Assembly: GCA_034231615.1 (NCBI GenBank)
Contig: CM067306.1
Location: 44,460,094-44,524,093 of the forward strand
DNA: 64,000 nucleotides
Origin: Meghimatium bilineatum
Taxonomy: Eukaryota; Mollusca; Gastropoda; Stylommatophora; Philomycidae
Direction of reading: 5' to 3'
Position numbers and translations under genes: made by a program. Below are positions 12,831 through 40,451 of this stretch, piece by piece; position 1 is the stretch's first letter; every line of letters starts with the position of its first letter. Under the pieces are notes generated by a model. That model saw nothing but the letters and a program-made list of their open reading frames with translations, was not told the origin of the DNA and made no database searches.

Positions 12831-12975
12831 AATATGATTCGTGTATTGTAATTTTTATGATTTCTTGTGTGCTCATCATTGCCCATCATTACCCACTAGT
12901 TTTTGATATAGTCTATGGTGTCCCATTGAGACGATATATAAACCTGTGCTTTACGTAAGTCTAATCAAAGACAAA

Positions 12976-13592
12976 GAAGGATTCATTCCAAGGAACACAT
13001 GGGTTGGCTGAGTTTTTCTGGGGTTTTCTTGAGGTATATTGAAATGTTTTTTATTTTGATCTTAATTTTATGGCAATTTTTTTTTCTGGAGTTTTCGTGT
13101 TTTGTTTCGTTTGTGATTTTCTAATGTTTAGGGCATACTGTTTAATGTAGTACCGCCCGATATCTCCGGTCTTTACTTGCTGATATTGTTGTGATGTCAT
13201 GTTATATAAGTAAATTGTCATAATGCGTGACGGTCTCTACATACAAGAACTATTCTCAAAAACCCTCTATCTCTTCTGTTTTGATGTTACATATGCCTAA
13301 ACTGTGTTTATTTTTGTTGTTACATCTTGCTACAACCAACTTGGTATAATTGTCTGTCTAATTCTGTGTTTGCTGTTTGTTGCAACTCCCTGATATAACC
13401 GAGGGAGTATGATGTGTATAAATATTCCGTCTCCTTACAGAGAACAGCTATAAAAACCAGCGGCCATATCTAACTTGTGTTATTTCTAATTAATAGTGTT
13501 CAACCTGTCTATGTTTTAAGTGTATATATCGTTTTATTGTTCGTAGAGGGTTGCATAGGGTCTTCCGAGTAGTTGATGATTATTACGTAAAC
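12976..13592 (+). other. Inverted-duplication arm sequence without a gene; LTR-like traits
   Basis: Counterpart of 32658-33285. It has a TATA-like tataaat in gatgtgtataaatattccg at about 13413 and the palindrome actccctgatataaccgagggagt-type sequence near 13386. These recall retroelement promoter sequence, but no coding region accompanies them, so I do not name an element. Confidence 0.35.
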
Positions 13593-13621
13593 TTTTTTTT
13601 TTCTTCTTCTTCTTTCGTTCG

Positions 13622-16600
13622 CTAATAATGTCTATATCTGCAGTGTTGTTTCTTGTATATATTGCACAGTGTTTTCCATTTCTTGTTTGTACCATATAGT
13701 TTAACATTTATTGGTGTATCAGAAGGCCAGTATGTGCATCTTAATGTGTCATAGTTTGCACATTCTTGAAGGATATGTTCTGAAGTCTGGTTGACTTGTC
13801 CACAATTACACTTTGCTGTTGTGCCAATTAAAAATTGTGTATACATATGGCTGTTTAGTCTATTGTGTCCAGTTCTCAGTCGAAATATGATGACCTGTTC
13901 TTGTCTGTTAAGTAGGTGGTAGTCATCCCGTGGAGGTAAGTTAGGCTTTCGTTGTGCCTTTATCATGGATTTCTTTTGGTGATAGCTGATTGGTACATCC
14001 GGTTGCTGCATGTTAGCACCTTCCTTGGCGTGTTGATCAGCTCTCTCATTTCCTGCTATTCCACAGTGTGATGGAATCCATTGCAGTATAACTCTACACC
14101 TATTTTGTACTATGGACAATACCTCTTTTAACTCTGGAAGTTTATTGGATTGTAATGCCTCTAGTACTGACCTTGCATCTGTAAGTATTACAATAGGGTG
14201 TGAGGTCCTGTCCAAAGTTAACAGATTCTCTGCAGCTGTATAAATAGCTTTTACTTCAGAGTCATAGTTGTTGCAGTAATTCCCTGTTGGAATACAAGTG
14301 GTATCAGTGGTGACATCTGGGTATTCTACATATACACCACTTCCTCCATTTTTTACTGCATTCTGTGCTGATCCATCTGTATATACTCTGGTCCATAGAT
14401 CACTTGGGTAAACATCATCAAGGAAACTTAGAGCTGCTACTCTTTTCTGCAGATTATTCTGATGTTCATCCCCATGCACACCTGAAACTGTTGTTTGGAT
14501 GGTCACTGGTAGGCATGTCCGTTTTTCCCATGGGGTGTGTTCTGGTTGAGATGTCAGTGGTATTGTTACCTCTGGTAGATCCGATGCCTGTCTACGTAGA
14601 CGCTTGGCCTGGTGTATGAAGCTGCTTCTTTTAAGCCGTCCTTGTGATAGATTCTGGAATCTTTCCTTCATTGGGTGACTATGGTGGGAAAGAAACTTTT
14701 CTCCATGAATTATAATTTTAGTATCTCTACGATCTTTCAATGACTGCATCCCTTCGATATTCTGCATTTCTATGATTGGTGTGGATCTCATTGCACCTGT
14801 AATGATTCTAAGTGCTTGGTTCTGTACTCTATCTAGGTTTTGTAGTGTAGTGTTTGATGATGAACTCCATGCTGTAGAACCATATTCCAAGTGTGGTCGA
14901 ATGGCTTGTTGGTATACATTTTTTAGAATTCTTTCATTAGCTCCCCAAGTTGTCCCACTCAGTTTTCTTAGTATAGCTATCTTCCTTCTAGCCTTTGTTT
15001 CTGCTTTGCTGATATGATGTTTCCATGTCATTTTGGCATCAAATGTTACACCAAGATATGTGGGTTGGTCATCTACCTTTAAGATAGTTTTATTTACATA
15101 GATGTTTCCTGCTCTTTGTTTTGGTGAAAGTGTAAAAAGGGTTGTTGCTGACTTCTCTATATTGATACTTACACACCATTTGTCAGCCCAATTAGTCAAA
15201 ATGTCCATGGCTCTCTGAAGCATTTATGTGGTAACCATGGCGCTCTCATGTGTGCACCACAGAACCAAGTCATCTGCATATAGTGCTGCCTTAGTTCCAC
15301 AGGGTATTTCTTCAATTAGATCATTGATAAATATTAGAAAAAGAGTGGGTGATAGAACTCCTCCTTGAGGCACTTCATGGCGTAGTAATACTTTCCTACT
15401 TTCTTTGCCATTTACTTGTACTCTGGCTCTTCTATTGTGAAGAAAGGCTTTCGTCCATCTATACATATTTCCACATATCTTGTAGTTTCTCATTTTTTGA
15501 AGCAATCCTTCTTTCCATACTTTATCAAAGGCCTTCTGTAAATCAATCCATGCCACTAAAACTGATTTTTTGTCTTGGAAAGCATCCTCAATTTCCTGTG
15601 AGAGGTATGTGGTTTGATCCTCTGTGGAGTAGCATTGCCTGAAACTTGCCTGCTGTGGTGCAAGGAATTTTCTACTTTCCAGGTGAAATTTTAGTCTTAG
15701 GTTTATGATGCGCTCCATTGTTTTGCACAGGCAACTTGTAAGACTAATTGGTCTGTAGCTAGTTGGTGTTGTTCCATCTTTTCCAGGTTTAAGCAGAGGG
15801 ACCATAATTGATTCTCTCCAGATTTGTGGTATTTTCCCAGTAGTCCAGCTAATATTTAGGATGTCCAATAGTTTCCTTCTGGCTGTTGTTCCTAGATTCT
15901 TTATCATTTCATTTGATATTTCATCAATTCCTGGAGACTTATTTAGCTTTAGTTTAGAGACTGCTAATTCTAATTCACTATATGTGAACAATGTATCCAT
16001 AATTTCATCTGCACTGTTTTCATCACTGATTCTAGTCTGAGCATGTTCCAATTTACTTTTTTGGTCGCTCCGCACTGTATGCTGTTTCTCTGGACTAATT
16101 TCAATATTGCAGTCTTGAACAAATATCCTAGCGAAATTATCTACTGCTTGCTTTCCTGTAATCATTTTGACATTCTGTACGAGTGTTATGTTTGTGCTTC
16201 TTCCTGTTCCCTCATCATTTAGTTGTTTGACCAGTTTCCACAGTTTTCTTCCATCCTTTTCAAAATTTAAGGATTCTGTTTTCTCTTTCCAGCTCTTTCT
16301 TCTAGCTTCTAGTTTGACTCTTTGGAATTTAGCTTTTGCGTGTTGATGTTTGTTGTGATGTTCCTGGCTTGGGTTATTTTCCACTTCCGTCCGTGCTTTT
16401 TCTAATTCCTCTTGCAGCAGTTCTAGTTGTTCACTCCAGTATGGCTTGTATTGTTTGCGTGCTCCTCTTGGTATTGCTTCCTTGGCAGCTTGATGAATAC
16501 ATTTATTGAACTCTTTGACTATGACGCTTATGTCTTTTCCTTCCATGTCTATTTGTCCAGCTAAAACACTACTGCGGTGTTTAAATAGTCCCCAATTTGC

Positions 16601-17497
16601 TTTTTTATAATTCCATCTTGGAAGGCTACATGCATTTCCTGTGAGTTCATTTTTAATACTAAGGAGGACTGGTCGATGGTCGCTACCTCCAAGTGGCTTC
16701 CCCACTGTTCTATTGATTTCCCAGTTTAGGTCTGCTGAGTACAATGCCAAGTCTGGCGTGGAAGTGGTTTGCCATGCTCGTGAGTAGTATGTTGGAGGAT
16801 CTTTTGACTTATTAAGCAATAGAAGACATGTATCGTCTTGCCAGCTTTCAAGTTCTTCTCCTCTTTTATCCATGTGGTCATAACCCCAAATTTGTGAGTG
16901 ACTATTAAAATCTCCACATACTATCAGTCTTCCTCTGTACGGTATTGTGTCCAGGGAAAGGGACTGGTCATTTGGACAATAATAATTTAGTAGGTTGAAG
17001 TCTGTGTTCTTGGTCTTTAGTTGAAGGACCTGATATTCTGCTCCTTCCATGTATAGCTCAGTTTGATGTGCGCTGATATTATTTTTGACTAGAGTTAGTA
17101 TACCTCCTTTTCTTCTGTCTATTCGATCAGCTCTAAAGCACTGATAACCTGCAATCTTAAAGGCTACATCGTTGCTGAGGTGTGTCTCTTGTATGCAACA
17201 AATGCTGACCTGTTCCTTGTGAAGGGTGTTTTATAATTATAATTTCTTGCTAAAGCCATCTTTTTTACTATTTACACCCTCAGCATTCCAGTGCATTATT
17301 GTAAGTGATGTCTCATTGGTTGGTAATATTTGTTGGTCAGTGATATTACTCTTGTGCCTCCTGGCTCCACAAGGCAATCGAAGAGGACCTCCAGTCGTAT
17401 GGGGTGGGCCTTTTCGAGGTATAGGGCCCGGTGCTACTCCTGCCTCGTGAGTCGTCACAGGGTTAGCACCATAACGGGGTAATGCAGATATAGACAT
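13622..17497 (-). pseudogene. LINE polyprotein: endonuclease, reverse transcriptase, RNase H (three premature stops)
   Basis: The frame runs from ATG at 17497 to the stop at 13622. Residues 1-65 form a Pro/Arg-rich leader. The AP-type endonuclease starts at IMHWNAEGVNS (about 67) and has CCIQETHLS, CGDFNSHSQ (about 195) and GGSDHRPV (about 272). The RT has NKSPGIDEISNEM (about 517), SYRPISLTSCLCKTMERI, AWIDLQKAFDKVW, EVPQGGVLSPTLF and the catalytic ALYADDLV (about 743). RNase H follows, with VYTDGSA (about 1038), NYDSEVKAIYTA, VILTDARSV and SHCGIAGNERAD (about 1147); all acidic residues are present. The C-terminus has the Cys/His motif CNCGQVNQTSEHILQEC. In-frame TAA codons occur at 17239-17237, 17233-17231 and just after YADD at about 15223; there are no frameshifts. 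It would act in target-primed reverse transcription in the nucleus. Confidence 0.93.
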
Positions 17498-17618
17498 TCA
17501 TGTGCGATAATGCATGCCATTCTGATTGTTGCGGTGCGCCTTCTGGCCAAATGTCGCTGACTTCAGCACCTTTACTTGCTAGGCAAGACTGTGGTCCTGC
17601 CCGAATGTGGGAGGGCCC

Positions 17619-17693
17619 GGCCAGTCTTAGTTTCCAGCCTCTGCTGGCTGGACTAAGCCCCATCTCCACGCCAAGGAGCTGGCCTCGATGGGG
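17619..17693 (-). ncRNA. HDV-like self-cleaving ribozyme at LINE 5' end
   Basis: The 75 nt start exactly at the first base of the element. Numbering from 17693: P1 is CCCCATC (1-7) with GATGGGG (30-36). P2 is GGCCAG (10-15) with CTGGCC (70-75). P3 is 3 bp (17-19 with 27-29) closing a 7-nt loop. P4 is CCAGCC (43-48) with GGCTGG (55-60). J4/2 is AAACTAAGA, with C64 in the place of the catalytic cytosine. This is the double-pseudoknot order of HDV ribozymes. Cleavage before base 1 would free the exact 5' end of the LINE transcript from any upstream cotranscript. Confidence 0.82.
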
Positions 17694-17704
17694 ATTACGT
17701 AAAC

Positions 17705-18933
17705 AATAACCTAGGGTTTGTTGTAACGTAGGTGTTGGTAGAATATACATGTCGGTTATTGCCAGGTCGGGTGTTACATGTGATACGCTTCTTTGGTAGT
17801 ATAGATAAAAGGGAAATACACAAGGGTCACATATATGCAGACAAACGTAAATAAAACGAGTTGTGTTTGAGTCGTGTTGAATAGGTTTTATTTAGGTTTT
17901 TCGTTATTTTAAATGAACATACATATAATTAGCATGAAAAGTGTATTTATGTATAAATTATTGGTAACATAAATTCGTATATACATAAAACTCTTTGGTA
18001 GCACATAATTAAAGGAAATACATGTATGTTTTTACATATATATACATACAAAAAATTAGATAAAACATGAAGATTTTGAATAGTTTAATTCATATTATGA
18101 CAGAGTCGTCTGCATAGTTAACAGGAAAAATGCTTCGCAAGTAGTAATCCATTTTAGGGAAATATATAATTTATACATATATACAGACAAATGTAGTACC
18201 ATTTTAGTCCTCTATTCGTCGTTTTACACAAATATGCACACAGTGTACAGACAAATTATGTTACAAATGAGTAGCATAAATTCATATATACATGAAATAA
18301 CACTAGTTGGTAAGCACATAGATCAGGGAAATACATGATGTTTACACATATACATTCAAAAAGTAGATAAAACATGAAGATTTTGAGTGGTGTAATTCAT
18401 ATTTTTGGCTTGGGATGTGGTTCCATAGCAGGAAAATATTTTTTTTTAAAAACAGAGTGGTGTTTTAAATTGATAAAAAGAGATATCAGAGGTCGGCCCG
18501 AAATAACAATGATTATATAACAATTAACCTGGAGCAAAGCCCTAATACGGATTATTTCCAAGGAAATTAGGCTTGGCTGAACTTTTCTGGGGGTTTTCTT
18601 GAGGTATTTTCTTTTTAAAAGTCGAACTTTTCATAATTTATATTTTGTTTCTTTTCTGTTTTATTTATATTTTATTGTTCATTTGTTGGTATTTTCTTGT
18701 GGTTTGTTATGTCTTGTTTATTTTTTTTAATTTTTTTTTGGGTGGGGGGGGGGGGAGTTGTTACATGCCTAGGTTTTAACAGAACTAGATACCCTTTTGT
18801 TGTCTACGTACCTGAACCTGTTCAGACTTTCTATAAAGCAAACACACCGTTTATCATTTTACCAAGTTAGCATACATCAACTTACATATCATCAAATTTG
18901 TCACTAATGAAATAACAGGCTAGTTAGATACAT
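17705..18933 (+). other. Inverted-duplication arm without a gene; 307-bp tandem duplication
   Basis: Counterpart of 31440-32657. Two copies of an about 307-bp segment occur, anchored on agataaaacatgaagatttt at 18058 and 18365. A poly-G run lies at 18742-18755. No coding signal on either strand. Confidence 0.6.
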
Positions 18934-19357
18934 CATCATCAGGTGCCATGCCTGGTGGCGTAGCCGGTCATGGCTCTCCACAGCACTCTGTCCACAGTAT
19001 TATATTTCAAAATCGTTGTTGTTTCTTTGCCGTGCCAGGTTGTCAAACTGTCTAATATTTTCTCACGTTTTCACCCTCTGTCTCTGATGCCTTCAATCTT
19101 GCCTGTTGTGATTATGTTCTCTAAACCTGCCTGTCACATGAAGTGGCCAAAAAAAGATTGCCTTTTTCTTATATATTCTTGATTGGGTCCGAAGGTCCGT
19201 TTCGCATTTAACTCTTTTAACTCCTCTAAATTAGTTTTTCTGGCAGTCCATGGTATTCTCAGCATTTTTCTGTAGAACCACATCTCTGTTGCCTCCAATC
19301 TCCCACTTTCCAGTTTGTTTATTGTCTAAGACTTGCACCCATATGTTAGTATAGGGG
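18934..19357 (-). mobile_element. RTE-like LINE 3' end inserted in left arm
   Basis: Minus-strand translation gives the C-terminus of an endonuclease/RT LINE: MWFYRKMLRIPWTARKTN, then TGKIEGIRD and LWRAMTGYA. Its low-coordinate end is catcatcatcaggtgcc, the complement of a GAT-type 3' tail, as in the plus-strand copy at 3490-3722. The insertion is flanked by ttagatacat (18924-18933) and ttggatacat (19358-19367), a 10-bp target duplication with one difference. The right arm lacks the insert at about 31405-31425. It is 5'-truncated, with stops in the frame. Confidence 0.85.
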
Positions 19358-19367
19358 TTGGATACAT

Positions 19368-21105
19368 AGGACTTTTAAAAACAATTAGTTTTGCGGAGAC
19401 GGCAAACCATCGATGCGCATAATAGGTACATGGTTATATCAGGGAGTTACTACAAGCAATAAACACATAATTTGAAACACACATAAAAACAATAGAGGGG
19501 CGGAGACCTACTAGAAGTTATATTAAACACAGTAGACAAATCACTGAACTAAACAAACAACAACAACATACGATAATGTGTAGAGACGTCACCCTCAACA
19601 CCGAACAGAACTGTGCTTGAAAGGTTAACATTAAACACATAAAAAAATAATTTATAAAATATATATTACAGATATAACCTTAAAATGTGTTAGTTTGCAC
19701 TAACAGTAACCGACAGCAGTTAAAATTACGATTCAAATCATTTACTATGACCTAATGAGAACAATATATTTTACTATATTAAGAATACCATTGACGTCTT
19801 TTATAGTATATCTTTTACAGAACAATACGATTTACACAATTACAGTGTTAGAACAAGGTGTTTCTGTCATATGCCCAATAGGTTAGCAAAAAAACTAGAT
19901 TATGTCCCTTACATAAACAGTCGTATACTATTCTTTATATGTTATCCCTTCTACTATGTTAACATTTTCTCAGTATATTCTCACGAACGTATAAGATTAT
20001 CTACCATATTATAAAATATTCTAAATGTTCTCCTTAGGTTCTGCAACTATTTTCTCAGTGGCCTCTTAAACTGTGTTTTCACGCAAACTTATTTTTTTCA
20101 TAACTAAAAGCTAAGAGCCAGTACAACTAAGAATATTCATTGATTTGCTTCTAGTAAGTACAAATTTTAATACTCCACATAATTTTGAAATGTGTTTATG
20201 ATGTACTTTTCCTAGAAGCTTGATATATATGTAGTAATGAAACATGAATAGGTCTATATTATAAAATATCAGACAACTTGAAATATAGAATATTCATTGC
20301 GTCTTGAATGTAACACAGTGAGTGACCTATTAACATATTTACATTTTAATGGTGATAGCCTTTGGAGATACTATGATATGGGGAATAACTATCATTTAAT
20401 TATGTATACTGTTTCTAAATTATGGAATATGAGACCACATATGAACAGGAATATAGGTATTGAGTAGCTATATGAATTCTTCCTAGATTAATGGTGGTAT
20501 GCCTATAGTTAGTACGTAATTAACTCACACCCTTTGATACGAATATTGAATTTATGTCCCCATATCATACGCATGCATGTCTAAATTTTTTCACTATCAA
20601 CTTATCGGCACAATGACTATATAACAGTTAACTTTAGATGCCTTTCCAATTTACCTACAGCCATGCCCATTATCAAGCAGTCTGTCCTGGTGCTCCTATA
20701 TAAAATGGTAGATCATGTGATCTGCTGAAAATCAAGCCTGTGTGTGATGTGACAAATTAATAAGAGAAGTCAGAATATAGAAAACATCACAGTTATGCAG
20801 CCATAACTTGAAGATGTCCTTGATGGTGATAATTGTGAACAAGGCTGCCCCAGCCAACACCGCTAACACATCCAAACATATTGCATGCTGTGTACATCTG
20901 TGACATGAAATGAACCTTTGCAGGATTGTAGAAGCTTGTGATTCACACTGTGCCAATAATGGAAATATGGAAGGCACAACACACTGTAGGAGCCATTTCG
21001 GCTCGATGGAAAGCTTCTAAAATCATTGCATACTTTTGAAAATCTTCTATGTATAAATTTCTGGAGGAACTATTTCACAGCATAAACATGAAGTGGCTTT
21101 ACAAA
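19368..21105 (+). other. Inverted-duplication arm, no recognisable gene
   Basis: Counterpart of about 29460-31160. Only short conserved open stretches exist. One, minus strand 20977-20732, matches plus strand 29617-29841 with the same reading (MAQCESQASTILQRFIS-type start in the right arm). It has no known family. Confidence 0.45.
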
Positions 21106-21342
21106 TTATTTATAGTGTATGCGATTTAAACAACCACCACTGACATCATAAAAAGTATAGTACATATGTAGTCTAGTACTAACAAATGATTCATTTGTTT
21201 CTATTGCAGGTTCATCTTCAATATATGACTCATTTCCTGCTGTTAGTGTAAAATACTGTTTGTATTCAAAGCCATGTTTATTACATTCACCACACAACAA
21301 ATTACATAATGGTGGCACACACTTTTGAGAAACACAGTTCAA
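21106..21342 (-). pseudogene. Conserved open frame in left arm, Cys-rich, unknown
   Basis: The 78-residue reading is MNCVSQKCVPPLCNLLCGEC and onward, then a Tyr-rich tail ending CLNRIHYK. The counterpart in the right arm (plus strand, about 29230-29466) keeps the frame but has TAG where this copy reads Tyr, and a Gly where this copy has the last Cys. The five closely spaced cysteines might be a zinc-binding or disulfide module, but I recognise no family. Its conservation may only reflect the recent duplication. Confidence 0.3.
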
Positions 21343-21833
21343 ACATTCAAGACTTATGCAGGACTTGTGGAGAGAAATTACTAACGAAAAAAACAGAAAT
21401 ATAACTACCAGAAACGGCTCCTTTGTACACTACATGTTAATAATATTTTCTTTAGTTTTGGTTTGAATGGAAATGATGATATGCCCAATAAATATTCAAC
21501 AAATATGTGCATAAAATGTTTATATAAAATTATAACACATTAATCTCACATATTCAGAGCAATCACTAAAGATAACACAACAAATTGGAGATAAATCTAG
21601 AAATGTTTGGTGTCATTCTAAGCCTGATGTTTGTATCAATTAGTGTTCTGTCTGTTTGCATTATTCAGTAAAATATCTTGGTAGCATGAAAATTTGAGTA
21701 CTAGGTCCACAAATGAAATGAATGCCGACATTTCTGATCTTTCAAAGCATCCCAATCAATCTAACATTTCCGTACAAGATGAGGTTGGTGTGTCTGATGA
21801 ACAACATTAAAAAAAGTAAGTTCAAAGGCAAAC

Positions 21834-22190
21834 TTGACAAATACATCAACAGCTCCAACGCAAAACATCAACAAACATCATAATATGCTGTGTAAGTCAC
21901 TAACACTACTACTTTCTTTAGTTGAAGAAAATCTGTTTACAAATTTTGTTAAGAGAAAACTGAACACAGCACACACTAAAAATATAATTACTTGCAAAAC
22001 ATTTGGACAGTCGATTACATTACATAAAATTATAAATCACAGAAAAGAATCACATGAAATAAAATCTCTAATGAGACGAATGCGATCAATATTTACTCAA
22101 GTAGTTAGAGAATGTATATCAGGCACATCCACTGATTCTTTAGAAGTTCAGCAGGCACATGAACTGAAACGACTACCCAAAAAAATCTAG
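21834..22190 (+). pseudogene. Conserved open frame at inner edge of left arm, unknown
   Basis: The 118-residue reading is rich in Lys, Thr and Ser, with the segment SLTLLLSLVEENLFTNFVKR and a basic stretch MRRMRSIFTQVVRE. The reverse-strand frame at 28309-28851 in the right arm is the same protein extended by about 60 residues, with very few changes. It ends here at the arm boundary. No motif was recognised. It is the best candidate in the window for a protein belonging to whatever the inverted duplication originally was. Confidence 0.35.
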
Positions 22191-22261
22191 TGTTAACATA
22201 AGTAAAGTTGCCCATTTAAAAGTAAGTATATCAACAAAAGCAGCTTTCTCATTGAAAGGAT

Positions 22262-22336
22262 CCCCATCAACGCCAGCACCGTGCTGTGGTGATGGGGCTT
22301 AGTTCAGCCATCAGGGGCTGGAAACTAAGACAGGTC
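22262..22336 (+). ncRNA. HDV-like ribozyme, copy 2 (degenerate P2)
   Basis: It is the same length and has the same helix positions as the copy at 17619-17693. P1 CCCCATC with GATGGGG is identical. P3 pair 17-29 is A-T here against T-A in copy 1, a compensatory change. P4 keeps five Watson-Crick pairs plus a T-G pair. J4/2 AAACTAAGA is unchanged. P2 has two mismatches and a G-T pair, so this copy is probably inactive. Confidence 0.72.
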
Positions 22337-22430
22337 GGGCAGTCCCATTCGAGCAGGACCATAGTCCTGCCCAGGTAAGCAGATTGCTGGAGACGGAGGC
22401 ATCCAGCCAAAAGGCGCACAGATAATCAGG

Positions 22431-25400
22431 ATGCCACGCACAAAACACAATGGAAACATTTCTGTATCTATAAAAAGTTATGGTGCCTGCCCTGTGGTGG
22501 ACGTTCAGGCAGGGACGGTGCCGGGCCCTATACCTCGAAAGGGTCCAACTTCAGTTACTGAAAGTCCTTCTCAATTGCCTCGAGGAGCCAGGAGGCAAGG
22601 GAATAGAGCTACTGGCCAAACAAACTTTAAACGACCAATAAAAATAATGCACTGGAATGCTAAGGGTGTCAACAGTAAAAGAGATGGATACAGCAAAAAA
22701 TTGGAACTTGAAAATGTCCTCAGTGAAGAACAAGTTAATATATGCTGTATCCAAGAAACACACCTCAGCAGCGACATAACCTTCAAAATCAGAGGATACC
22801 AGTGCTACCGATCTGACCGAAAGGACAGGCGAAAGGGTGGAATTCTGACACTTGTTAAAAACAATATTATCGCATGTCAGCTGGAAGTATATATGGAAGT
22901 GGCAGAATACCAGATGCTCCACCTAAAACAGACAGTGCAGAATTCCATCTCCTGAATTGCTACTGCCCAAATGATAAACCATTGGCACTAGACACAATTC
23001 CAGAAAAAGAGAGACTTATGTTGTGTGGTGACTTCAACAGCCACTCTCAGAGCTGGGGCTACGATCATATCGATAAGAGAGGTGAGGAACTTGAGAGCTG
23101 GCAGGATGAAAATAATCTCATCCTTATTAACCAGCCAGCAGACTCACCAACCTTCTACTCGAGAGCATGGCACACCACCTCTACACCAGATCTGGCATTC
23201 CACTCACCAGGCGTGGATTGGAACATCACACGTGTCGTTGGAAAGCAGCTTGGGGGTAGTGACCACAGACCAGTATTTCTGGAAATCCACAATGAATTTA
23301 CCAAGGACAGCAGCACGCTCACTAGGTGGAACTATAAGAGGGCAGACTGGAAAATGTACCAGCATTTAACCAGTGCTCTAGCTAAGGACATGAACTTGGA
23401 CAAAGACATCAATAGAGCAGTGAGTGAATTTAATAGATGTATACTACATACTGCTAGTAAAACCATACCCTGGGTGGGGGGGGGCACGTAAAAACTACAA
23501 ACCCTACTGGAATGATGAACTGGAAAAGCTGCAAAATGAGATGGAAACATCTAGACAGCAGGCTGAGAACAGACCTAGCCAAGAACATCACAACAAATAT
23601 CAGCAAACAAAGGCTAAATTTCAAAGAGTCAAGTTACAAGCCAGACGGAGTAGCTGGAAAGAAAAAACAGAGTCGCTGAACCTAGAAAGAGATACTAGGA
23701 AATTATGGAAACTTGTAAAACAACTAAATGATGAAGGTACAGGGAGAAATACCAGGATCACACCTTATAAAGATAGAAACATTTCAACAGGTAAACATGC
23801 AGCTTATTGCTTTGCAGATTCCTTTGCAGAATACAATAACATCAAAGTCAGCCCAGACAAACAACAGGAGGTTCGAGAGAACCAGCAAAACATTGGACAA
23901 GGCGAACCTATACCTGAAGTCATGGAGGCACCAATCACAATGAGAGAACTGGAGCATGCAATATCCAAAGTGAAAATGAGAAAGTCCCCTGGAGCTGATG
24001 GAGTGTCCAATGAAATGATTAGAAACCTGGGAATTGCAGCAAGAGCAAAGCTACTGCAGATCTTTAACACAAGCTGGTCCACGGGTAATGTACCACAGGC
24101 GTGGAGAGAAGCAATAATGATACCAATCCTCAAATCAGGAAAAGATGGCAACACAGTCTCCAACTACAGGCTCATCAGCCTCACAAGCTGTCTATGCAAA
24201 ACAATGGAACGCATTATCAATCTTAGGATGCAGTGGTACCTTGAAAGTGAAAACCTTCTGGTATCACAGCAAGCAGGTTTCAGACAGTGCTACTCTACTG
24301 AAGATCAGGCAACCTACCTCTACCAAGAGATTGAGGATGCCTTCCAAGATAAGAAACTGGTACTAGCAGCATGGATAGACCTCAGAAGAGCATTTGATAA
24401 GGTCTGGAAAGAAGGGCTCCTAAAGAAATTGCGAAATTGCAGGGTTAGCTCAAGAATGTACAAATGGGTAAAAGCATACCTGCATAATAGAAGAGTCAGG
24501 GTACAACTAGATGGTCGCAAGAGCAAGAAAGTCCTACTGCGTCATGGAGTCCCCCAGGGAGGAGTCCTGTCACCCACACTTTTCTTGGTTTACATCAATG
24601 ACCTAGTTGCTGAACTACCACATGGGATCAAAGTGGCAATGTATGCTGACGACCTGGTGATCTGGTGCACGGAAGAACATGCGACAGTGGCCACTAAACA
24701 AATACAAAGAGCTATCGATGCCCTAACCTTATGGGCTAATAGATGGTGCGTCAGCATTAACACAGATAGGTGCAGCATTACAATTTTTACCCTCTCACCA
24801 AAACAAAAAGCCGGTCACATCAAAATAGATGGAGAGCTCTTGAAAGAAGACAAACAACCCACATAACTCGGAGATACTTTTGATGATAAGCTGACATGGA
24901 AGCAGCACATAAACAAAGCAACAACAAAAGCCAGGAGGAAGTTAGCTATCCTGAGAAAACTAAGTGGAACCACAAGGGGAGCCAGTGGGAATATACTCAG
25001 TAAAGTTGCAAGGCATAAGACCACACCTGGAATATGGTTCAGCTGCATGGTGTCCTGCATCAAACACCACATTACAAGATCTAGATAGATTGGAAAACTA
25101 GGCACTTAGAATAATGTTGGGAGCAATGAAATCAACACCCATAGCAGAGATGCAGAAAATGGGAAGAATGCAAAAACTTGGCGAAGGCAGAGACACAAAA
25201 GTAATAATTCAGGCAGAAAAGTTTCAGTGTATGCCAAGTCATCCAATGAAGGAAAGATTCCATAATCTAGCAATGGGACGACTGAAAAGAAGCAGCTTTA
25301 TCCATCAAGCTAAACGACTTCGCAGACAACTTACAGACCTACCTGAAGTTGACAGCCCCTTAAGGCCTGTACCAGAACAAACCCCGTGGAGTGAAAGACA

Positions 25401-26280
25401 TGGAATGTCAATATATATTCAGACCCATGTGAAAGGAATACTAAGCGAGGACGAACAGAACAGTGTAGTGTGCAGCGAAGGACAGTCACCCTCAGTTTCC
25501 TGGATGAGGAATATCCACAAGATATATGGGTCAGAGTATACACAGATGGGTCAGCATAGAATGCCGTGAGGAATGGAGGTGCAGGTGTATATATATAATA
25601 TCCACACAAGCCCAGAACACCGACATGAAAATTCTGCAATAATTATGATGCAGAAATCCAGGCAATTAGTGAGGCAGCTAAAAAAACTGCTGAACTCCTA
25701 CTATGACCTACAGCCTGTGGTATTCCTGACAGATGCAAGGTCAGTGCTTCAAGCTCTCCAGTCTGAAAAACTAACAGACTTGAAAAAACTACTTAGCGAA
25801 TTGTCTTACCAGTATAGGGTACCCATGCAGTGGATACCCTCTCACTGTGGAATACCAGGAAATGAAAAAGCAGACCAACTGGCTAAGGAAGGTGCTGCCT
25901 AAGACCAACCAGATATACCAATCACATACCATCAGAAAAAACAGATGATCAAGTCAATAAGAAAGCCACAAACACCAACACAAGATGACTATCATATTAT
26001 GAACATACCAGAACAAGTTATAATTCTACGTCTCAGAACAGGACACAACCGACTCCGCATTCACATGTATACAAAGTTCAAGATTGGGAACACAGCCATG
26101 TGTACATGTGGACAGGCAGCACAGAGTGCCAAACATATACTTCAAGAGTGTTCTGAGCATGAAATGCTGAGGCAGACATATTGGGCAGAGGAAACAACAC
26201 TGGAATCAAAACTCTATAGGACACTGTATGAACTACAAAAGACAGTGAGTTTTATTAAGGAGACAGAATTACAGATATAG
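22431..26280 (+). pseudogene. LINE polyprotein: endonuclease, reverse transcriptase, RNase H (frameshifted)
   Basis: The first frame (22431-22952) gives the leader and the endonuclease start, IMHWNAKGVNSKRDGYSKKL, then shifts. The next (to 23491) has CGDFNSHSQSWGYDH and GGSDHRPV, and breaks at a G run (about 23472-23484). The third (to 24866) has RKSPGADGVSNEM, SYR-like NYRLISLTSCLCKTMERI, IDLRRAFDKVW, GVPQGGVLSPTLF and AMYADDLV. It stops at TAA where copy 1 reads Tyr (QPTYLG). RNase H follows in pieces: a degraded YTDGSA near 25540, FLTDARSV, and SHCGIPGNEKADQ near 25850. The C-terminus CTCGQAAQSAKHILQEC is intact (about 26100). At least six lesions in total. Confidence 0.9.
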
Positions 26281-26326
26281 ACATGTTTCAAGTGAACGAA
26301 AGAAGAAGAAGAAGAAGAAGAAGAAG

Positions 26327-28092: not shown

Positions 28093-28384
28093 ATGTGAAA
28101 GAATCACTAGGACTTTCCTGGAGACAAGAAAGAAAACATAGATCTTTTCTAAAACTATGGTCACATGAAAAATCACAAAGGAAATGTGCAAAATATATTA
28201 CAAGAGACTGGGTGAATGTTGTAATGAAATAATTTGAGAGTGATAAGGGACTAACAAACGAGGCACCATTGGCTTACATTAATAATTTAGATTCATTTGT
28301 TAGTGCTCTTATGTGTGATTATAGTAGGGAGAGTTTGTTGACTTTGCATAATGGATACATTCCAGAGAATCAGATTTTATGTTA
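28093..28384 (+). pseudogene. Open-frame relic beside the right arm, unknown
   Basis: The frame reads VKESLGLSWRQERKH, then ITRDWVNVVMK, a single TAA at about 28228, and continues as LAYINNLDSFVSALMCDYSR and LHNGYIPENQIL. It stops just past the right-arm inner edge. The composition is protein-like (Trp, charged residues, few low-complexity runs) but I recognise no family. Its position in the spacer suggests it belonged to the unit between the arms. Confidence 0.35.
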
Positions 28385-28851
28385 ACACTAGATTTTTTGG
28401 GTAGTCGTTTCAGTTCATGTGCCTGCTGAACTTCTAAAGAATCAGTGGATGTTCCTGACATACGTTCTCCAACTACTTGAGTAAATATTGATCGCATTCG
28501 TCTCATTAGAGATTTTATTTCATGTGATTCTTTTCTGTGATTTATAATTTTATGTAATGTAATCGACTGTCCAAATGTTTTGCAAGTAATTATATTTTTA
28601 GTGTGTGCTGTGTTCAGTTTTCTCTTAACAAAATGTGTAAACAGATTTTCTTCAACTAAAGAAAGTAGTAGTGTTAGTGACTTACACTGGATATTATGTT
28701 TGTTGATGTTTTGCGTTGGAGCTGTTGATGTATTTGTCAAGTTTACCTTTGAACTTATTTTTTTAATGTTGTTCATCAGACACACCAACCTCATCTTGTA
28801 CGGAAATGTTAGATTGATTGGGATGCTATGAAAGATCAGAAATGTCGGCAT
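28309..28851 (-). pseudogene. Conserved open frame at inner edge of right arm, unknown
   Basis: A 180-residue frame, with no interior stop, that is the longer version of the left-arm frame at 21834-22190. It adds an N-terminal stretch with an uncharged start (MPTFLIFHSIPINLTFPYK) and a C-terminal tail reading into the spacer. Lys/Arg-rich middle with MRRMRSIFTQVVGE. No signal for a known domain. Confidence 0.35.
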
Positions 28852-31800
28852 TCATTTCATTTGTGGACCTAGTACTCAAATTTTCATGCTACCAAGATAT
28901 TTTACTGAATAATGCAAACAGACACGACACTCATTGATACAAACATCAGGCTTAGAATGACACCAAACATTTCTAGATTTATCTCCAATTTGTTGTGTTA
29001 TCTTTAGTGATTGCTCTGAATATGTGAGATTAATGTGTTATAATTTTATATAAACATTTTATGCACATATTTGTTGAATATTTATTGGGCATATCATCAT
29101 TTCCATTCAAACCAAAACTAAAGAAAATATTATTAACATGTAGTGTACAAAGGAGCCGTTTCTGGTAGTTATATTTCTGTTTTTTTCGTTAGTAATTTCT
29201 CTCCACAAGTCATGCATAAGTCTTGAATGTTTGAACTGTGTTTCTCAAAAGTGTGTGCCATCATTATGTAATTTGTTGTGTGGTGAAGGTAATAAACATG
29301 GCTTTGAATACAAACAGTAGTTTACACTAACAGCAGGAAATGGGTCATATATTGAAGATGAACCTGCAATAGAAACAAATGAATCATTTGTTAGTACTAG
29401 ACTACATATGTACTATACTTTTTATGATGTCAGTGGTGGTTGTTTAAATCGCATACACTATAAATAATTTGTAAAGCCACTTCATGTTTATGCTGTGAAA
29501 TAGTTCTTCCAGAAATTTATACATAGAAGATTTTCAAAAGTATGCAATGATTTTAGAAGCTTTCCATCGAGCTGAAATGGCTCCTACAGTGTGTTGTGCC
29601 TTCCATATTTCCATAATTGGCACAGTGTGAATCACAAGCTTCTACAATCCTGCAAAGGTTCATTTCATGTCACAGATGTACACAGCATGCAATATGTTTG
29701 GATGTGTTAGCGGTGTTGGCTGGGGCAGCCTTGTTCACAATTATCACCATCAAGGACATCTTCAAGTTATGGCTGCATAACTGTGATGTTTTCTATATTC
29801 TGACTTCTCTTATTAATTTGTCACATCACACTCAGGCTTGATTTTCAGCAGATCACATGATCTACCATTTTATATAGGAGCACCAGGACAGACTGCTTGA
29901 TAATGGGCATGGCTGTAGGTAAATTGGAAAGGCATCTAAAGTTAACTGTTATATAGTCATTGTGCCGATAAGTTGATAGTGAAAAAATTTAGACATGCAT
30001 GCGTATGATATGGGTACATAAATTCAATATTCGTATCAAAGGGTGTGAATTAATTACGTACTAACTATAGGCCTACCACCCTTAATCTAGGAAGAATTCA
30101 TATAGCTACTCAATACCTATATTCCTGTTCATATGTGGTCTCATATTCCAGAATTTAGAAACTTTGTACATTAAAATGTAAATATGTTAATAGGTCACTC
30201 ACTGTGTTACATTCAAGACGCAATGAATATTCTATATTTCAAGCTGTCTGATATTTTATAATATAGACCTATTCATGTTGCATTACTACATGTATATCAA
30301 TCTTCTCAGAAAAGTACATCATAAACAGATTTCAAAATTAAGTGCAGTAGTAAAATTTATACTTACTAGAAGCAAAAACAATGAATATTCCAATATTCAT
30401 ATATATATATATATTCTTATAGCTAGTTGTACTGGCTCTCAGCTTTTAGTTATGAAAAAAAATAAGGTTGCGTGAAAACACAGTTTAAGAGGCCACTGAG
30501 AAAATAGTTGCAGAACCTAAGGAGTATATTTAGAATATTTTATAATATGGTAGATAATCTTATACGTTCGTGAGAATATACTGAGAAAATGTTAACATAG
30601 TAGAAGGGATAACATATAAAGAATAGTATACGACTGTTTATTTAAGGGACATAATCTAGTTTTTTTGCTAACCTATTGGGCATATGACAGAAACACCTTA
30701 TTTGTTTACCTACTTGATAACTCTAATACTGTAATTGTGTAAATCGTATTGTTCTGTAAAAGATATACTATAAAAGACTTCAATGGTATTCTTAATATAG
30801 TAAAATATATTGTTCTCATTAGGTCATTGCAAATGATTTGAATCGTAATTTTAACTGCTGCCGGTTACAGTTAGTGCAAACTAACACATTTTAAGGTTAT
30901 ATCTGTAATATATATTATAGATTGTTTTTTAAGTGTTTAATGTTAACCTTTCAAGCACAGTGTACTTCTGTTCGGTGTTGAAAGTGACGTCTCTACACAT
31001 TATCGTATTCTGTTGTTGTTTGTTTAGTTCAGTGATTTGTCTAGTGTGTTTAATATAACTTCTAGTAGGTCTCCGCCCCTCTATTGTTTTTATGTGTGTT
31101 ACAAATTATGTGTTTATTGCTTGTAGTAACTCCCTGATATAACCATGGGCTTATTATGCTTATTATGTGCTTATATAAGTGGTACATATCGCGTCTGTGA
31201 CGGCAAAGGTACCGAGTTCGGTCCTCACCACAGGCAATTGTGCATTTGGACCGTTCAGAAAGCAATGGCAATCTACTGAACGTATTTATATGGCCTAGAA
31301 AATCACCACAGCCAACAAATGCTGGGTTGATAGGTACGTCCTGGATAGGATATGCTACCAATTTATTATGCGCATCGATGATTTGCCGTCAACTAATTGT
31401 TTTTAAAAGTCCTATGTATTTAACTAGCCTGTTATTTTATTAGTGACAAAATTGATGATACATCCTTGTATCTTTCAAAGTACATTGTACATTGCAAAGT
31501 TGATGTATACTAACTTGGTAAAATGATAAACGGTGTGTTTGCTTTATGGAAATTCTGAACAGGTTCAGGTACGTAGACAACAAAAGGGGATCTAATTCTG
31601 TTAAAACCTAGGCATGTAACAACTCCCCCCCCCCAAAAAAAAAAATAAACAACAAGACATAACAAACCACAAGATAATACCAACAGATAAACAATAAAAT
31701 ATAAATAAAACAGAAAAGAAACAAAATATAAATTATGAAAAATTAGACTTAAAAAAAAAATACCTCAAGAAAACCCCCGGAAAAGTTCAGCCAAGCCTTC

Positions 31801-33368
31801 TTTCCTTGGAAATAATCCGTATTAGGGCTTTGCTCCAGGTTAATTGTTATATAATCATTGTTATTTCGGGCCGACCTCTGTTATCCCTTTTTATCAATTT
31901 AAAACACCACTCTGTTTTTTTCCTGCTATGGAACCACATCCCAAGCCAAAAATATGAATTACACCACTCAAAATCTTCATGTTTTATTTATATTTTGAAT
32001 GTATATGTGTATACATCATGTATTTCCCTGAGCTATGTGCTTGCCAACTAGTGTTATTTCATGTATATATGAATGTATGCTACTCATAAAACTCACATTA
32101 ACATAATTTGTCTGTTAACTGTGTGCATATTTGTGTAAAACGACGAATAGAGGACTAAAATGGTACTACATTTGTCTGTAAATTTGTATAAATTATATAT
32201 TTCCCTGAAATGGATTACTACTAGCGTAGCATTTTTCCTGTTAACTATGCAGACGACTCTGACATAATATGAATTAAACTATTCAAAATCTTCATGTTTT
32301 ATCTAATTTTTTGTATGTATAAATATATGTAAAAATACAGGTATTTCCCTTAACTATGTGCTACCAACGAGTTTTATGTCTATACTAATGTATGTTACTA
32401 ATAATGTATACATAAATCCACTTTTCATACTAATTATATGTATGTTCATTTAAAATAACGGAAAACCTAAATAAAACCTATTCAACACAACTCAAACACA
32501 ACTCGTTTTATTTACGTTTGTCTGTATATATGTGACCGTTGTGTATTTCCCTTTTATCTATACTACCAAGGAAGCGTATCACATGTAACACCCGACCTGG
32601 CAATAACCGACATGTGTATTCTACCAACGCCTACGTTACAACAAACCCTAGGTTATTGTTTACGTAATAATCATCAACTACTCGGAAGACCCTATGCAAC
32701 CCTCTACGAACAATACAACGATATATACACTTAAAACATAGACAGGTTGAACACTATTAATTAGAAATAACACAAGTTAGATAGGGGCCGCTGGTTTTTT
32801 ATAGATGTTCTCTGTAAGGAGACGGAATATTTATACACATCATACTCCCTCGATTATATCAGGGAGTTGCAGCAAACACAGAATTAGACACACAATTATA
32901 CCAAGTTGGTTGTAGCAAGATGTAACAACAAAAATAAACACAGTTTAGGCATATGTAACATCAAAACAGAAGAGATAGAGGGTTTTTGAGAATAGTTCTT
33001 GTATGTAGAGACCGTCACGCATTATGACAATTTACTTATATAACATGACATCACAATAATATCAACAGGTAAAGACCGGAGATATCGGGCGGTACTACAT
33101 TAAACAGTATGCCCTAAACATTAGAAAATCACAAACGAAACAAAACACGAAAACTCCAGGAAAAAATTGCCATACAATTAAGATCAAAATAAAAAAACAT
33201 TTCAAAATATTTTTTTTTTAAATACCTTAAGTAAACCCCAGAAAAACTCAGTCAACCCTTGTGTTCCTTGGAATTAATGCTTCTTTGTCTTTGATGCCAG
33301 GTGTTTCCTTCTTTGTTATTGATGCCAGGAAAAAGCTTCACGTAAACCTCGCTATATACTACTCGTAC
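28380..33368 (-). repeat. Right arm of the large inverted duplication
   Basis: Reverse complement of the left arm (10841-22199) without the left-arm Penelope, LINE and RTE-like inserts. It contains one insert of its own, the SINE at 31171-31362. It preserves the empty sites at 32658-32668 (LINE), about 33270-33300 (Penelope) and about 31405-31425 (RTE-like). It has a poly-C run at 31625-31634, the mate of the poly-G run at 18742. Confidence 0.92.
31171..31362 (+). mobile_element. tRNA-derived SINE, copy 2, right-arm specific
   Basis: A 192-bp insert flanked by ttattatgtgc (31160-31170) and ttattatgcgc (31363-31373), an 11-bp target duplication with one change. The left arm lacks it at about 19417-19430. 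The tRNA-like head has gtggtacatatcgcgtctg and the B box gagttcggtcc. It is homologous along its length to 7216-7420 but lacks that copy's ATTAGA tail. Confidence 0.85.
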
Positions 33369-35640: not shown

Positions 35641-35955
35641 TTAGTATATTATACTACCTAACTTTAATATATTATCCTACCTAACTTGAGTATATTATTC
35701 TACCTAACTTGCATATACTACCTAACTTGCATATACTACCTAACTTGCATATACTACCTAACTTGCATATACTACCTAACTTGAGTATATTATTCTACCT
35801 AACTTGCATATACTACCTAACTTGCATATACTACCTAACTTGCATATACTACCTAACTTGCATATACTACCTAACTTGCATATACTACCTAACTTGCATA
35901 TACTACCTAACTTGCATATACTACCTAACTTGCATATACTACGTAACTTGGCTTT
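35641..35955. repeat. Satellite array, 19-bp CCTAACTTGCATATACTAC units
   Basis: About twelve nearly perfect 19-bp units with a few 24-bp gagtatattatcc variants. The array ends at a variant unit (actacgtaacttgg) where a LINE fragment begins. Confidence 0.95.
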
Positions 35956-35982
35956 CAGATCAACACGTCCAAATCAAATATC

Positions 35983-36628
35983 ATGGAACTTAACAGCTCA
36001 ACAAATAACATCTTAGTAAATAACCAAATACTGGAAAAAGTCTCCAGCTTTAATTACTTGGGCAGCCGAATGTTTGTTGACGGAGACTCAATGAAAGAAA
36101 TAAACACACGTATAGTAATGGCAGCTAGCACATTTGCTAAATTAACTAATATCTGGAAATCAAAAGATCTAGGGACAAACACCAAACTAAAACTATTTAA
36201 CTCATGTATTGTATCCGTGCTAACGTATGGTAGTGAAAGCTGGAAATCAACTCAAGCAACAGACAACAAACTAAACAGCTTCGAAAACACATGTCTACGC
36301 AAACTTATGAACATAAAATGGTGCGACTTTTTCACAAATAGTGATCTAAGAGACAAAACACACCAAGAGTATGTTTCAAACATCATAAGAAAACGAAGAT
36401 GGAAATACCTTGGCCACGTTTTACGACTAGATGTAAAGAGAATAAACCAGCAAGCCTTTATGTGGTCACCTGAGGGCAAGAAAAAGAGGAAGACCTAAAA
36501 CAACCCTTAAAAACACCATTCTTAAAGAAGGGGAATTAATATGCTGTAAGACCATTCAGGAACTAAAGCTGCAGGCAGCGAACCGCATCATATGGAGAAC
36601 CAGAACCTCTGCCCTATGTGTCGCTTGA
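35983..36628 (+). pseudogene. RTE-like LINE RT C-terminus (first duplicate)
   Basis: The frame to 36498 has KVSSFNYLGSRMFVDGDSMK, then LKLFNSCIVSVLTYGSESWK and FENTCLRKLMNIKWCDFF, the regions after the RT active site. RRWKYLGHVLRLD follows. A shift near 36480 leads to RGRPKTTLKNTILKEGEL, ending ALCVA at the stop near 36628. No YxDD is present; the element is 5'-truncated. The 3' end is gaacaaactaactaacc, flowing into satellite. Confidence 0.85.
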
Positions 36629-36639
36629 GGCACGAAAGG

Positions 36640-36785
36640 AACAAACTAACTAACCTAACTTGCATATACTACCTAACTTGCATATACTACCTAACTTGAG
36701 TATATTATCCCACCTAACTTAAGTATATCATCCTAACATAAGCATATCATCCTACCTAAATTGCATATCCTACCTAACCTACCTA
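36640..36785. repeat. Short satellite run between LINE pieces
   Basis: About seven units of the CCTAACTTG satellite following the LINE end at 36628. The equivalent run in the second duplicate is at 40312-40457. Confidence 0.85.
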
Positions 36786-39309: not shown

Positions 39310-39625
39310 CTAACCTAACTTGAGTATATTATCCTACCTAACTTGAGTATGTCATCCTATCTAACTTGCATATCCTACCTAACTTGAGTATGTCATCCTA
39401 TCTAACTTGCATATCCTACCTAACTTGAGTATATTATCCTACCTAACTTGAGTATATTATCCTACCTAACTTGAGTATATTATCCTACCTAACTTGCATA
39501 TACTACCTAACTTGCATATACTACCTAACTTGCATATACTACCTAACTTGCATATACTACCTAACTTGCATATACTACCTAACTTGCATATACTACCTAA
39601 CTTGCATATACTACGTAACTTGGCT
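39310..39625. repeat. Satellite run between duplicates
   Basis: Mixed 24-bp (gagtatattatcctacctaactt-type) and 19-bp units. It starts directly at the LINE end aactaactaacctaacttg and stops at the variant unit actacgtaacttgg. Confidence 0.92.
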
Positions 39626-39654
39626 TTCTGATCAACACGTCCAAATCAAATATC

Positions 39655-40300
39655 ATGGAACTTAACAGCTCAACAAATAACATCTTAGTAAATAACCAAA
39701 TACTGGAAAAAGTCTCCAGCTTTAATTACTTGGGCAGCCGAATGTTTGTTGACGGAGACTCAATGAAAGAAATAAACACACGTATAGTAATGGCAGCTAG
39801 CACATTTGCTAAATTAACTAATATCTGGAAATCAAAAGATCTAGGGACAAACACCAAACTAAAACTATTTAACTCATGTATTGTATCAGTGCTAACGTAT
39901 GGTAGTGAAAGCTGGAAATCAACTCAAGCAACAGACAACAAACTAAACAGCTTCGAAAACACATGTCTACGCAAACTTATGAACATAAAATGGTGCGACT
40001 TTTTCACAAATAGTGATCTAAGAGACAAAACACACCAAGAGTATGTTTCAAACATCATAAGAAAACGAAGATGGAAATACCTTGGCCACGTTTTACGACT
40101 AGATGTAAAGAGAATAAACCAGCAAGCCTTTATGTGGTCACCTGAAGGCAAGAAAAAGAGGAAGACCTAAAACAACCCTTAAAAACACCATTCTTAAAGA
40201 AGGGGAATTAATATGCTGTAAGACCATTCAGGAACTAAAGCTGCAGGCAGCGAACCGCATCATATGGAGAACCAGAACCTCTGCCCTATGTGTCGCTTGA
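39655..40300 (+). pseudogene. RTE-like LINE RT C-terminus (second duplicate)
   Basis: Residue-for-residue the same as 35983-36628 over the main 171-residue frame, with the same frame break before RGRPKTTLKNTILKEGEL. Confidence 0.85.
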
Positions 40301-40451
40301 GGCACGAAAGGAACAAACTAACTAACCTAACTTGCATATACTACCTAACTTGCATATACTACCTAACTTGAGTATATTATCCCACCTAACTTAAGTATAT
40401 CATCCTAACATAAGCATAATATCCTACCTAAATTGCATATCCTACCTAACC

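What the first reader, a model, noticed from the sequence alone, without database searches (positions are those of the whole stretch)
17619..17693. HDV-like self-cleaving ribozyme at the exact 5' end of an RNase H LINE, with covariation between two copies
Seen: base 1 of the fold is base 1 of the LINE, fixed by the 11-bp target duplication and by the empty site in the opposite arm. Both copies (also 22262-22336) are 75 nt, with P1 (CCCCATC/GATGGGG), 3-bp P3 with a 7-nt loop, P4 and J4/2 (AAACTAAGA) at the same positions. P3 pair 17-29 is T-A in one copy and A-T in the other. P2 is a perfect 6 bp in copy 1. Known: HDV-like ribozymes sit at the 5' ends of R2, RTE and trypanosome L1Tc elements. 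Inference: this family uses one to define its RNA 5' end.
Basis: partly seen in the sequence, partly recalled or inferred. Interest (0 to 1): 0.85.

Follow-up and report, generated by a model that had tools for sequence, protein, structure and literature searches.

The report
Self-cleaving ribozyme heads mollusc LINE elements
Thousands of sites in this mollusc genome carry a "jumping gene" start that looks, at its exact first base, like the hepatitis-delta type of self-cutting RNA, which probably trims the element's RNA to its correct beginning; the same trick is known from trypanosome and insect elements, and cutting has not been tested here in the laboratory.

Summary
Both 75-nt segments form the described double pseudoknot at base 1 of a LINE (copy 2 with two P2 mismatches). 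Copy 1's first base is fixed by an 11-bp target duplication and an empty site in the opposite arm. The host is a mollusc (1.6 Gb; clustered hemocyanin domains). A 14-mer of the motif occurs 6,594 times, its reversal 28 times. In 82 copies conservation switches on at base 1.

Four LINE groups carry the segment: D (window copy 1), ABC (copy 2), E (endonuclease piece 54% identical to D) and F (pieces 27-32%). Between D and ABC it is the most conserved stretch of the 4.1-kb element (89% against a mean of 68%); in F it is the only stretch alignable as DNA within the 1.5 kb seen. Between families the pseudoknot helix P2 changes compensatorily at two pairs and P3 at one, which a hairpin-only fold would not predict.

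No Rfam HDV model hits, P1.1 has one certain pair, P4 shows no covariation, independent events are few, and cleavage is untested. Closest relative: the trypanosomatid Pr77/L1Tc ribozyme, which also starts with C. Verdict: very probably an HDV-like ribozyme defining the LINE RNA's 5' end; a new member of a known kind in a new host group.

The parts
17619..17693 (-). HDV-like ribozyme candidate, copy 1 (base n = 17694 - n)
   Evidence: the LINE is 98.7% like L150
17687..17693 (-). P1 5' strand CCCCATC; cleavage expected 5' of 17693
   Evidence: sequence; conservation onset at this base in 82 copies
17679..17684 (-). P2 5' strand GGCCAG
   Evidence: compensatory changes at pairs 11-74 and 15-70
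17665..17677 (-). P3 hairpin TCC-TTGGCGT-GGA; L3 has T21, G22, G25 in 79, 80 and 81 of 82 rows
   Evidence: pair 17-29 T-A / A-T between families
17658..17664 (-). P1 3' strand GATGGGG
   Evidence: sequence
17653..17657 (-). J1/4 CTTAG; C37 could pair with G22 (P1.1); also complementary to CTAAG of J4/2
   Evidence: CTTAG in 76 of 79 rows chosen by the 14-mer
17633..17652 (-). P4 hairpin (7 bp, 6-nt loop)
   Evidence: 94.1% of cells paired, no pair changed on both sides
17625..17632 (-). J4/2 AACTAAGA; C64 (17630) is the candidate catalytic cytosine (C75 of HDV, by recalled analogy)
   Evidence: where J4/2 was not part of the selection: C64 in 27 of 30 rows and 14 of 14 E rows
17619..17624 (-). 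P2 3' strand CTGGCC
13593..17693 (-). LINE copy 1 (D family), single-ORF EN-RT-RNase H type, frame broken in this copy
   Evidence: intact relative L150, 1288 aa
17694..17704 (-). target-site duplication, 5' side (GTTTACGTAAT read on minus)
13582..13592 (-). target-site duplication, 3' side
32658..32668 (-). empty site in the opposite arm of the inverted repeat
22262..22336 (+). HDV-like ribozyme candidate, copy 2 (base n = 22261 + n); P2 carries two mismatches
22262..26318 (+). LINE copy 2 (ABC group, 95% like L149), frames broken

Best explanation
The first 75 nt of this LINE RNA fold into an HDV-like self-cleaving ribozyme. When the element is co-transcribed from an upstream host promoter, the ribozyme cuts the chain just 5' of its own base 1, releasing an RNA that starts exactly at the element's first base. 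Because cleavage is upstream of the ribozyme, the ribozyme travels in the RNA and is copied into every full-length insertion. Shown here: position at base 1, double-pseudoknot complementarity, conservation across four LINE groups, compensatory changes in P2 and P3, and retention in internally deleted derivatives. Inferred: catalysis, the role of C64, host co-transcription, and any help to translation.
For: Base-1 boundary in 82 copies: the ten columns before base 1 carry 0.02-0.38 bit, base 1 carries 1.39 bit (one column farther out, -69, has 0.52). Duplications of 11, 12 and 11 bp end at base 1 in window copy 1, L149 and L150. First 75 columns 89% identical between L149 and L150, mean of 162 windows 68%; of the other 161 only the overlapping next one is as high. 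F elements (endonuclease pieces 27-32% identical to L150) share as DNA with L149/L150 only a stretch ending at bases 66-87 (first 1.5 kb compared). In 127 rows P2 15-70 is G-C 95, A-T 16, other 16; 11-74 is G-T 78, A-T 22, G-C 18, other 9; P3 17-29 is A-T 79, T-A 35, other 13. In 80 distinct rows (of 139) 43 paired cells are changed on both sides against 15.4 +/- 2.8 shuffled (0 of 500) and at most 17 slid. With families defined outside the ribozyme: 1 non-standard cell of 115 against 11.6 permuted; 3 double-changed pairs, reached by 45 of 20,000 permutations (finest cut). E, sampled by a downstream 22-mer: T70 in 14 of 14, A15 in 11 of 14 by eye (10 in fixed register; two loci look like one duplicated stretch). 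At least 12 of 80 loci join the 5' end to a 3' part of the LINE. Known parallel: PMC4035085.
Against: No Rfam HDV family at E <= 10 around either copy, none at gathering score in the window, none for RF00094 genome-wide, though that search rang in no control genome. P1.1 is at best one certain pair (C37-G22; 38-21 is T-T in 42 of 45 unique rows). The pseudoknot-free minimum-energy fold extends P4 by CTTAG/CTAAG and would bury C64. P4 has no double-sided change, and the number of pairs with any double change (6) is ordinary (117 of 500 shuffles). Few independent events: about one per covarying pair. P1 position-4 mutants mostly keep G33: in the 100 listed of 131 places, 13 changed there, 3 of them complementary, counted by eye. 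A first unsupervised test that included a decayed duplicated copy (L125/L126) was not significant (1541, 2283 and, jointly, 626 of 10,000). No cleavage data.
Confidence: 0.85

Rival explanations
1. The segment is a structured RNA or DNA element without catalysis: two stable hairpins (P1 and a 12-bp extended P4) that act as a 5' end-protecting or RT/translation signal.
For: The pseudoknot-free fold of both window copies gives these hairpins at about -35 kcal/mol, z -2.7 and -4.4; CTTAG is kept in 76 of 79 rows chosen by the 14-mer and 13 of 14 E rows, though only 21 of 30 rows.
Against: This fold does not use P2, yet P2 shows two compensated pairs; the extended hairpin has no covariation beyond chance (score 0.071 observed, 0.071 shuffled).
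Confidence: 0.1
2. [quoted passage not shown] pairing is incidental.
For: Pr77 is reported to be both promoter and ribozyme (PMC4035085 background; PMC8256844 passages).
Against: In F the DNA similarity ends close to the 3' strand of P2 (bases 66-87), and changes keep pairing, which a DNA-binding site would not require. Not exclusive with the ribozyme.
Confidence: 0.08
3. The ribozyme is a fossil: active in an ancestor, but these families now use another 5' end mechanism.
For: Window copy 2 has a damaged P2; P1.1 is weak.
Against: In many near-identical copies of the L149-like and L150-like families the segment is intact, and it is the most conserved part of the element.
Confidence: 0.07

Closest known systems
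Pr77-hallmark / L1TcRz HDV-like ribozyme of trypanosomatid L1Tc/ingi-clade LINEs and their short derivatives
   Same: About 77 nt at base 1 of an endonuclease-RT-RNase H LINE; base 1 is C (PMC4035085 section 6 speaks of C1; primer CCCTGGCTCAGCCGG in PMC4748587, passage); kept in short internally deleted derivatives; HDV-like fold with P1, P2, P3, P4 and a P1.1 unlike that of HDV/R2 (PMC4035085 sections 3 and 9).
   Different: Host is a mollusc; no trypanosome sequence was aligned, none being held; whether Pr77 has the self-complementary J1/4-J4/2 was not checked; catalysis is shown only for the trypanosomatid ones.
R2 LINE ribozymes of insects and other animals
   Same: HDV-like fold at a LINE 5' end that frees the RNA from a co-transcript (PMC3774820 passages).
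   Different: R2 is site-specific in 28S rDNA; P1 GC orientation and P1.1 differ from the C-starting type (PMC4035085 section 9).
HDV ribozyme (Rfam RF00094)
   Same: Double-pseudoknot topology, 3-bp P3 with a 7-nt loop, J4/2 with C followed by N-A-A (core letters and loop size recalled).
   Different: No Rfam match; C rather than G at base 1 (G recalled); P1.1 reduced.
Ingi-type LINEs of gastropods
   Same: Ingi is reported as numerous in several gastropods, among them sacoglossan heterobranchs (PMC11203168 passages).
   Different: The word ribozyme does not occur in that paper's main text; clade membership of this element was not tested.

Membership tests
HDV-like ribozyme | Nested double pseudoknot with P1, P2, P3, P4 in HDV order and spacing | tested here: met
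   Both copies match the descriptor, copy 2 through the allowed P2 mismatch; 93.0% of cells paired in 80 rows
HDV-like ribozyme | Helices supported by covariation, the pseudoknot P2 included | tested here: met
   P2 pairs 11-74 and 15-70, P3 pair 17-29; P1 only single cells; P4 none; few independent events
HDV-like ribozyme | J4/2 with catalytic C followed by N-A-A | tested here: met
   rows not selected on J4/2: C64 27 of 30 and 14 of 14, T65-A67 28 of 30 and 14 of 14; role of the C inferred
HDV-like ribozyme | P1.1 of two pairs between L3 and J1/4 | tested here: inconclusive
   22-37 is G-C in 43 and G-T in 2 of 45 unique rows; 21-38 is T-T in 42 of 45; P1.1 differs in the trypanosomatid type too
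HDV-like ribozyme | Match to an Rfam HDV covariance model | tested here: not met
HDV-like ribozyme | Self-cleavage 5' of base 1 | not testable with these tools
   needs in vitro transcription
Pr77-type LINE ribozyme (L1Tc/ingi clade) | At base 1 of an EN-RT-RNase H LINE, kept in internally deleted derivatives | tested here: met
   L150 ORF 1288 aa: EN 68-274, RT 572-819, RNase H 1037-1161; at least 12 of 80 loci are internally deleted
Pr77-type LINE ribozyme (L1Tc/ingi clade) | Host LINE belongs to the Ingi clade by RT phylogeny | not tested
   no reference Ingi RT at hand; no relatives found in genome contigs or viral contigs
Pr77-type LINE ribozyme (L1Tc/ingi clade) | C at base 1, C-first P1 | tested here: met
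   C at base 1 in 74 of 82 rows

The most novel reading that the evidence does not exclude
The mollusc segment and trypanosomatid Pr77 descend from one ribozyme that has stayed at the head of this LINE lineage since before animals and trypanosomes split, and the well-kept CTTAG/CTAAG complement is a second state: after cleavage P4 zips up by five pairs, buries C64, shuts the ribozyme off and leaves a stable hairpin at the RNA's 5' end.
Probability: 0.2. Interest if true: 0.8.

Novelty: new member of a known kind. Interest (0 to 1): 0.55.

Why it matters
It places a C-starting, Pr77-like ribozyme at the head of thousands of element copies in an animal; the papers holding both 'Pr77' and 'ribozyme' in the searched library are five, four on trypanosomatids and one HDV review (listing). 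The segment outlasts the protein-coding part of the element: in the F group it is the only stretch found alignable as DNA. That makes it testable whether 5'-end ribozymes are inherited with a LINE lineage, exchanged between lineages, or reinvented. It also gives a case that the Rfam HDV models did not detect.

Tried and rejected
Rfam scans of the window and of 401 and 91 nt around the copies: no HDV family; RF00094 over the whole genome: 0 of 1 genomes, 0 of 14 controls. P1 position-4 mutants as a covariation test: 100 of 131 places listed, 13 also changed at 33, 3 of these complementary (by eye); judged post-insertion decay. Search for copies with a changed P4: 56 places (20 for the reversed pattern), many of them by eye the antisense reading of the near-palindromic P4 hairpin; no new family seen. 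Tree of downstream regions: several loci were read on the wrong strand and many do not align; not used. Family test: families were defined partly by the tested columns, so circular for 15-70, and the F and E letters at position 4 come from the selection; replaced; unsupervised clusters including L125/L126 (a decayed copy in a duplicated stretch) not significant (1541 of 10,000); told because it goes against the reading. In one search the one non-standard cell comes from the F consensus (5 old rows, one of which, L154, does not align), and some E rows are out of register; structure strings set in wrong columns; replaced by 108 and 109. One of four stretches folded (L149:162-236) was not the ribozyme; ignored. 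Relatives outside this genome: none in genome contigs or viral contigs by DNA pattern or protein. Sanchez-Luque 2011 and 2012 and Ruminski 2011 are not held.

Full report
What is there. Two 75-nt segments, 17693 down to 17619 on the minus strand and 22262-22336 on the plus strand, sit at base 1 of two LINE copies. In base-1 numbering: P1 1-7/30-36, P2 10-15/70-75, P3 17-19/27-29 with loop 20-26, J1/4 37-41 (CTTAG), P4 42-48/55-61, J4/2 62-69 (AACTAAGA). P1 and P2 cross, so the fold is a pseudoknot. Copy 1 is perfect in P1-P4; copy 2 has two mismatches in P2. The two LINEs are 67.6% identical over 4150 aligned columns.

Base 1. For copy 1 the 11-bp duplication GTTTACGTAAT directly precedes base 1 and follows the A-rich 3' end. 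The flanks match the opposite arm of a large inverted repeat at 93% and meet there with about one copy of the target. Eighty loci were fetched: the first 80 of the 100 listed places of an exact 14-mer of P4/J4-2, all in the first 14.4 Mb of one contig. With the two window copies, 82 rows: the ten columns before base 1 carry 0.02-0.38 bit (one farther out, -69, has 0.52) and base 1 carries 1.39 bit; C stands at base 1 in 74 of 82. Relatives L149 and L150 have duplications of 12 and 11 bp ending at the same base.

Host and element. The genome (1.61 Gb, 32 contigs) has 50 matches to the hemocyanin domain PF14830 in clusters on two contigs and none in 14 control genomes; one of them matches hemocyanins in the PDB, keyhole limpet among them. 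That this hemocyanin type marks molluscs is recalled; the species was not determined. L150, 98.7% identical to copy 1, has an intact ORF of 1288 aa with endonuclease 68-274, RT 572-819 and RNase H 1037-1161, starting 196 nt after base 1. No other ORF of at least 200 aa was listed in L150. L149 and L150 end in GAA repeats. This is the architecture of Ingi-type elements (recalled); the clade was not tested. Ingi is reported as numerous in several gastropods (PMC11203168, passages).

Copy number and derivatives. The exact 14-mer occurs 6,594 times against 28 for its reversal. Among the 80 loci at least 12 join the 5' 168-378 nt to a 3' part of the LINE (only about 320-440 nt were visible, so a lower bound), like the short derivatives of trypanosomatid elements.

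Conservation. Between L149 and L150 the first 75 columns are 89% identical; 162 windows average 68%, and only the overlapping next window equals the first. E elements (L132, endonuclease piece 54% identical to L150) and F elements (pieces 27-32%) keep it; in F (L001, L099, L119, L125, L126, L137) DNA similarity to L149/L150 stops at base 66-87 within the 1.5 kb compared. So the conserved unit is close to the ribozyme itself. Exchange of 5' ends between families would give the same picture and is not excluded.

Covariation. Of 139 rows, 80 distinct ones were aligned (43 chosen by the 14-mer, 13, 24; left out: window copies, duplicates, L125/L126 and rows from which an extra G had been removed). 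93.0% of cells pair (shuffled 90.4, slid at most 52.3), 43 cells are changed on both sides (shuffled 15.4 +/- 2.8, 0 of 500 as high; slid at most 17), score 0.166 (shuffled 0.124, slid at most 0.062). The number of pairs with any double change (6) is not unusual (117 of 500). The weight comes from P2 15-70 (G-C to A-T in E) and P3 17-29 (A-T / T-A); P2 11-74 moves between A-T, G-T and G-C. Selection on positions 4 and 32 biases P1; the 14-mer fixes part of P4, J4/2 and base 70. With families clustered on positions 77-196 only, E and F taken by patterns outside the ribozyme (14 and 5 rows), and clusters under three rows left out (26, 14 or 9 of 79 rows by cut), 1 cell of 115 is non-standard (permuted mean 11.6; 0 of 20,000 as low) and 3 pairs are double-changed (45 of 20,000 reach this) at the finest cut; at the coarser cuts 2 pairs (455 and 430 of 20,000). 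Low non-standard counts partly reflect conservation of paired columns; the double-change figures are the covariation proper. Independent events are few, about one per pair. An earlier clustering with a decayed duplicated copy in it was not significant.

Against. No Rfam HDV model sees it. P1.1 has one safe pair. Without pseudoknots the segment folds into P1 plus a 12-bp hairpin that would hide C64; CTTAG is kept in 76 of 79 14-mer rows and 13 of 14 E rows but in 21 of 30 rows, and the extension shows no covariation, so its formation is neither supported nor excluded. P4's covariation could hardly be seen in rows selected for its 3' strand. Catalysis is inferred.

Comparison. The Pr77-hallmark of trypanosomatid L1Tc/ingi elements is a 77-nt HDV-like ribozyme at base 1 of EN-RT-RNase H LINEs and their short forms, starts with C, differs from HDV and R2 in P1 GC orientation and in P1.1, and keeps its catalytic function in the majority of those assayed (PMC4035085: abstract, background, result sections 5, 6, 9 and one methods section read; PMC4748587 passages). 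R2 ribozymes free their RNA from a 28S co-transcript (PMC3774820, passages). HDV-like ribozymes are listed for several other animals; 'mollus' does not occur in that review's main text (PMC8256844). Searches listed no paper on a Pr77-type ribozyme in molluscs or other animals; several lists were capped (for example 20 of 171), and only openly licensed papers are held.

Verdict. Observation confirmed, interpretation supported, function untested: a new member of a known kind in a new host group, with an open question about common descent with Pr77.

Noticed in passing
window 12964-22201 and 28377-33295: Large inverted repeat with matching pieces 90-93% identical; LINE copy 1 is inserted in the left arm and copy 2 lies in the spacer.
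   Followed up: partly
window 45828-50999 and 50982-56127: Two 5.2-kb copies in tandem, 99.2% identical, themselves built of shorter repeats.
   Followed up: no
window 35656-39622 and 39313-43307: 4-kb tandem duplication, 98.2% identical, with shorter repeats at 34.7-35.9 and 43.0-44.0 kb.
   Followed up: no
L016 (= L008), L026, L031, L033, L035, L040, L050, L057, L068, L074, L076, L088: Internally deleted derivatives that keep the 5' ribozyme segment and join it to a 3' part of the LINE.
   Followed up: partly
L001, L099, L119, L125, L126, L137: Old LINE group F: the first stretch up to base 66-87 is 79-90% identical to L150, the endonuclease match (about 27-32%) begins only near base 715-880. 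L153-L157, found by a pattern just after the ribozyme, belong with them.
   Followed up: partly
offsets -70 to -67 and -57 before base 1 in 82 copies: T/A-rich signal about 11-14 nt upstream of base 1, and T directly before base 1 in 45 of 82, suggesting a fixed duplication length and a preferred second-strand site.
   Followed up: no
G000 contigs C15 (48.69-49.24 Mb) and C22 (44.15-44.27 Mb): Hemocyanin domains clustered on two contigs, perhaps from a large-scale duplication.
   Followed up: no
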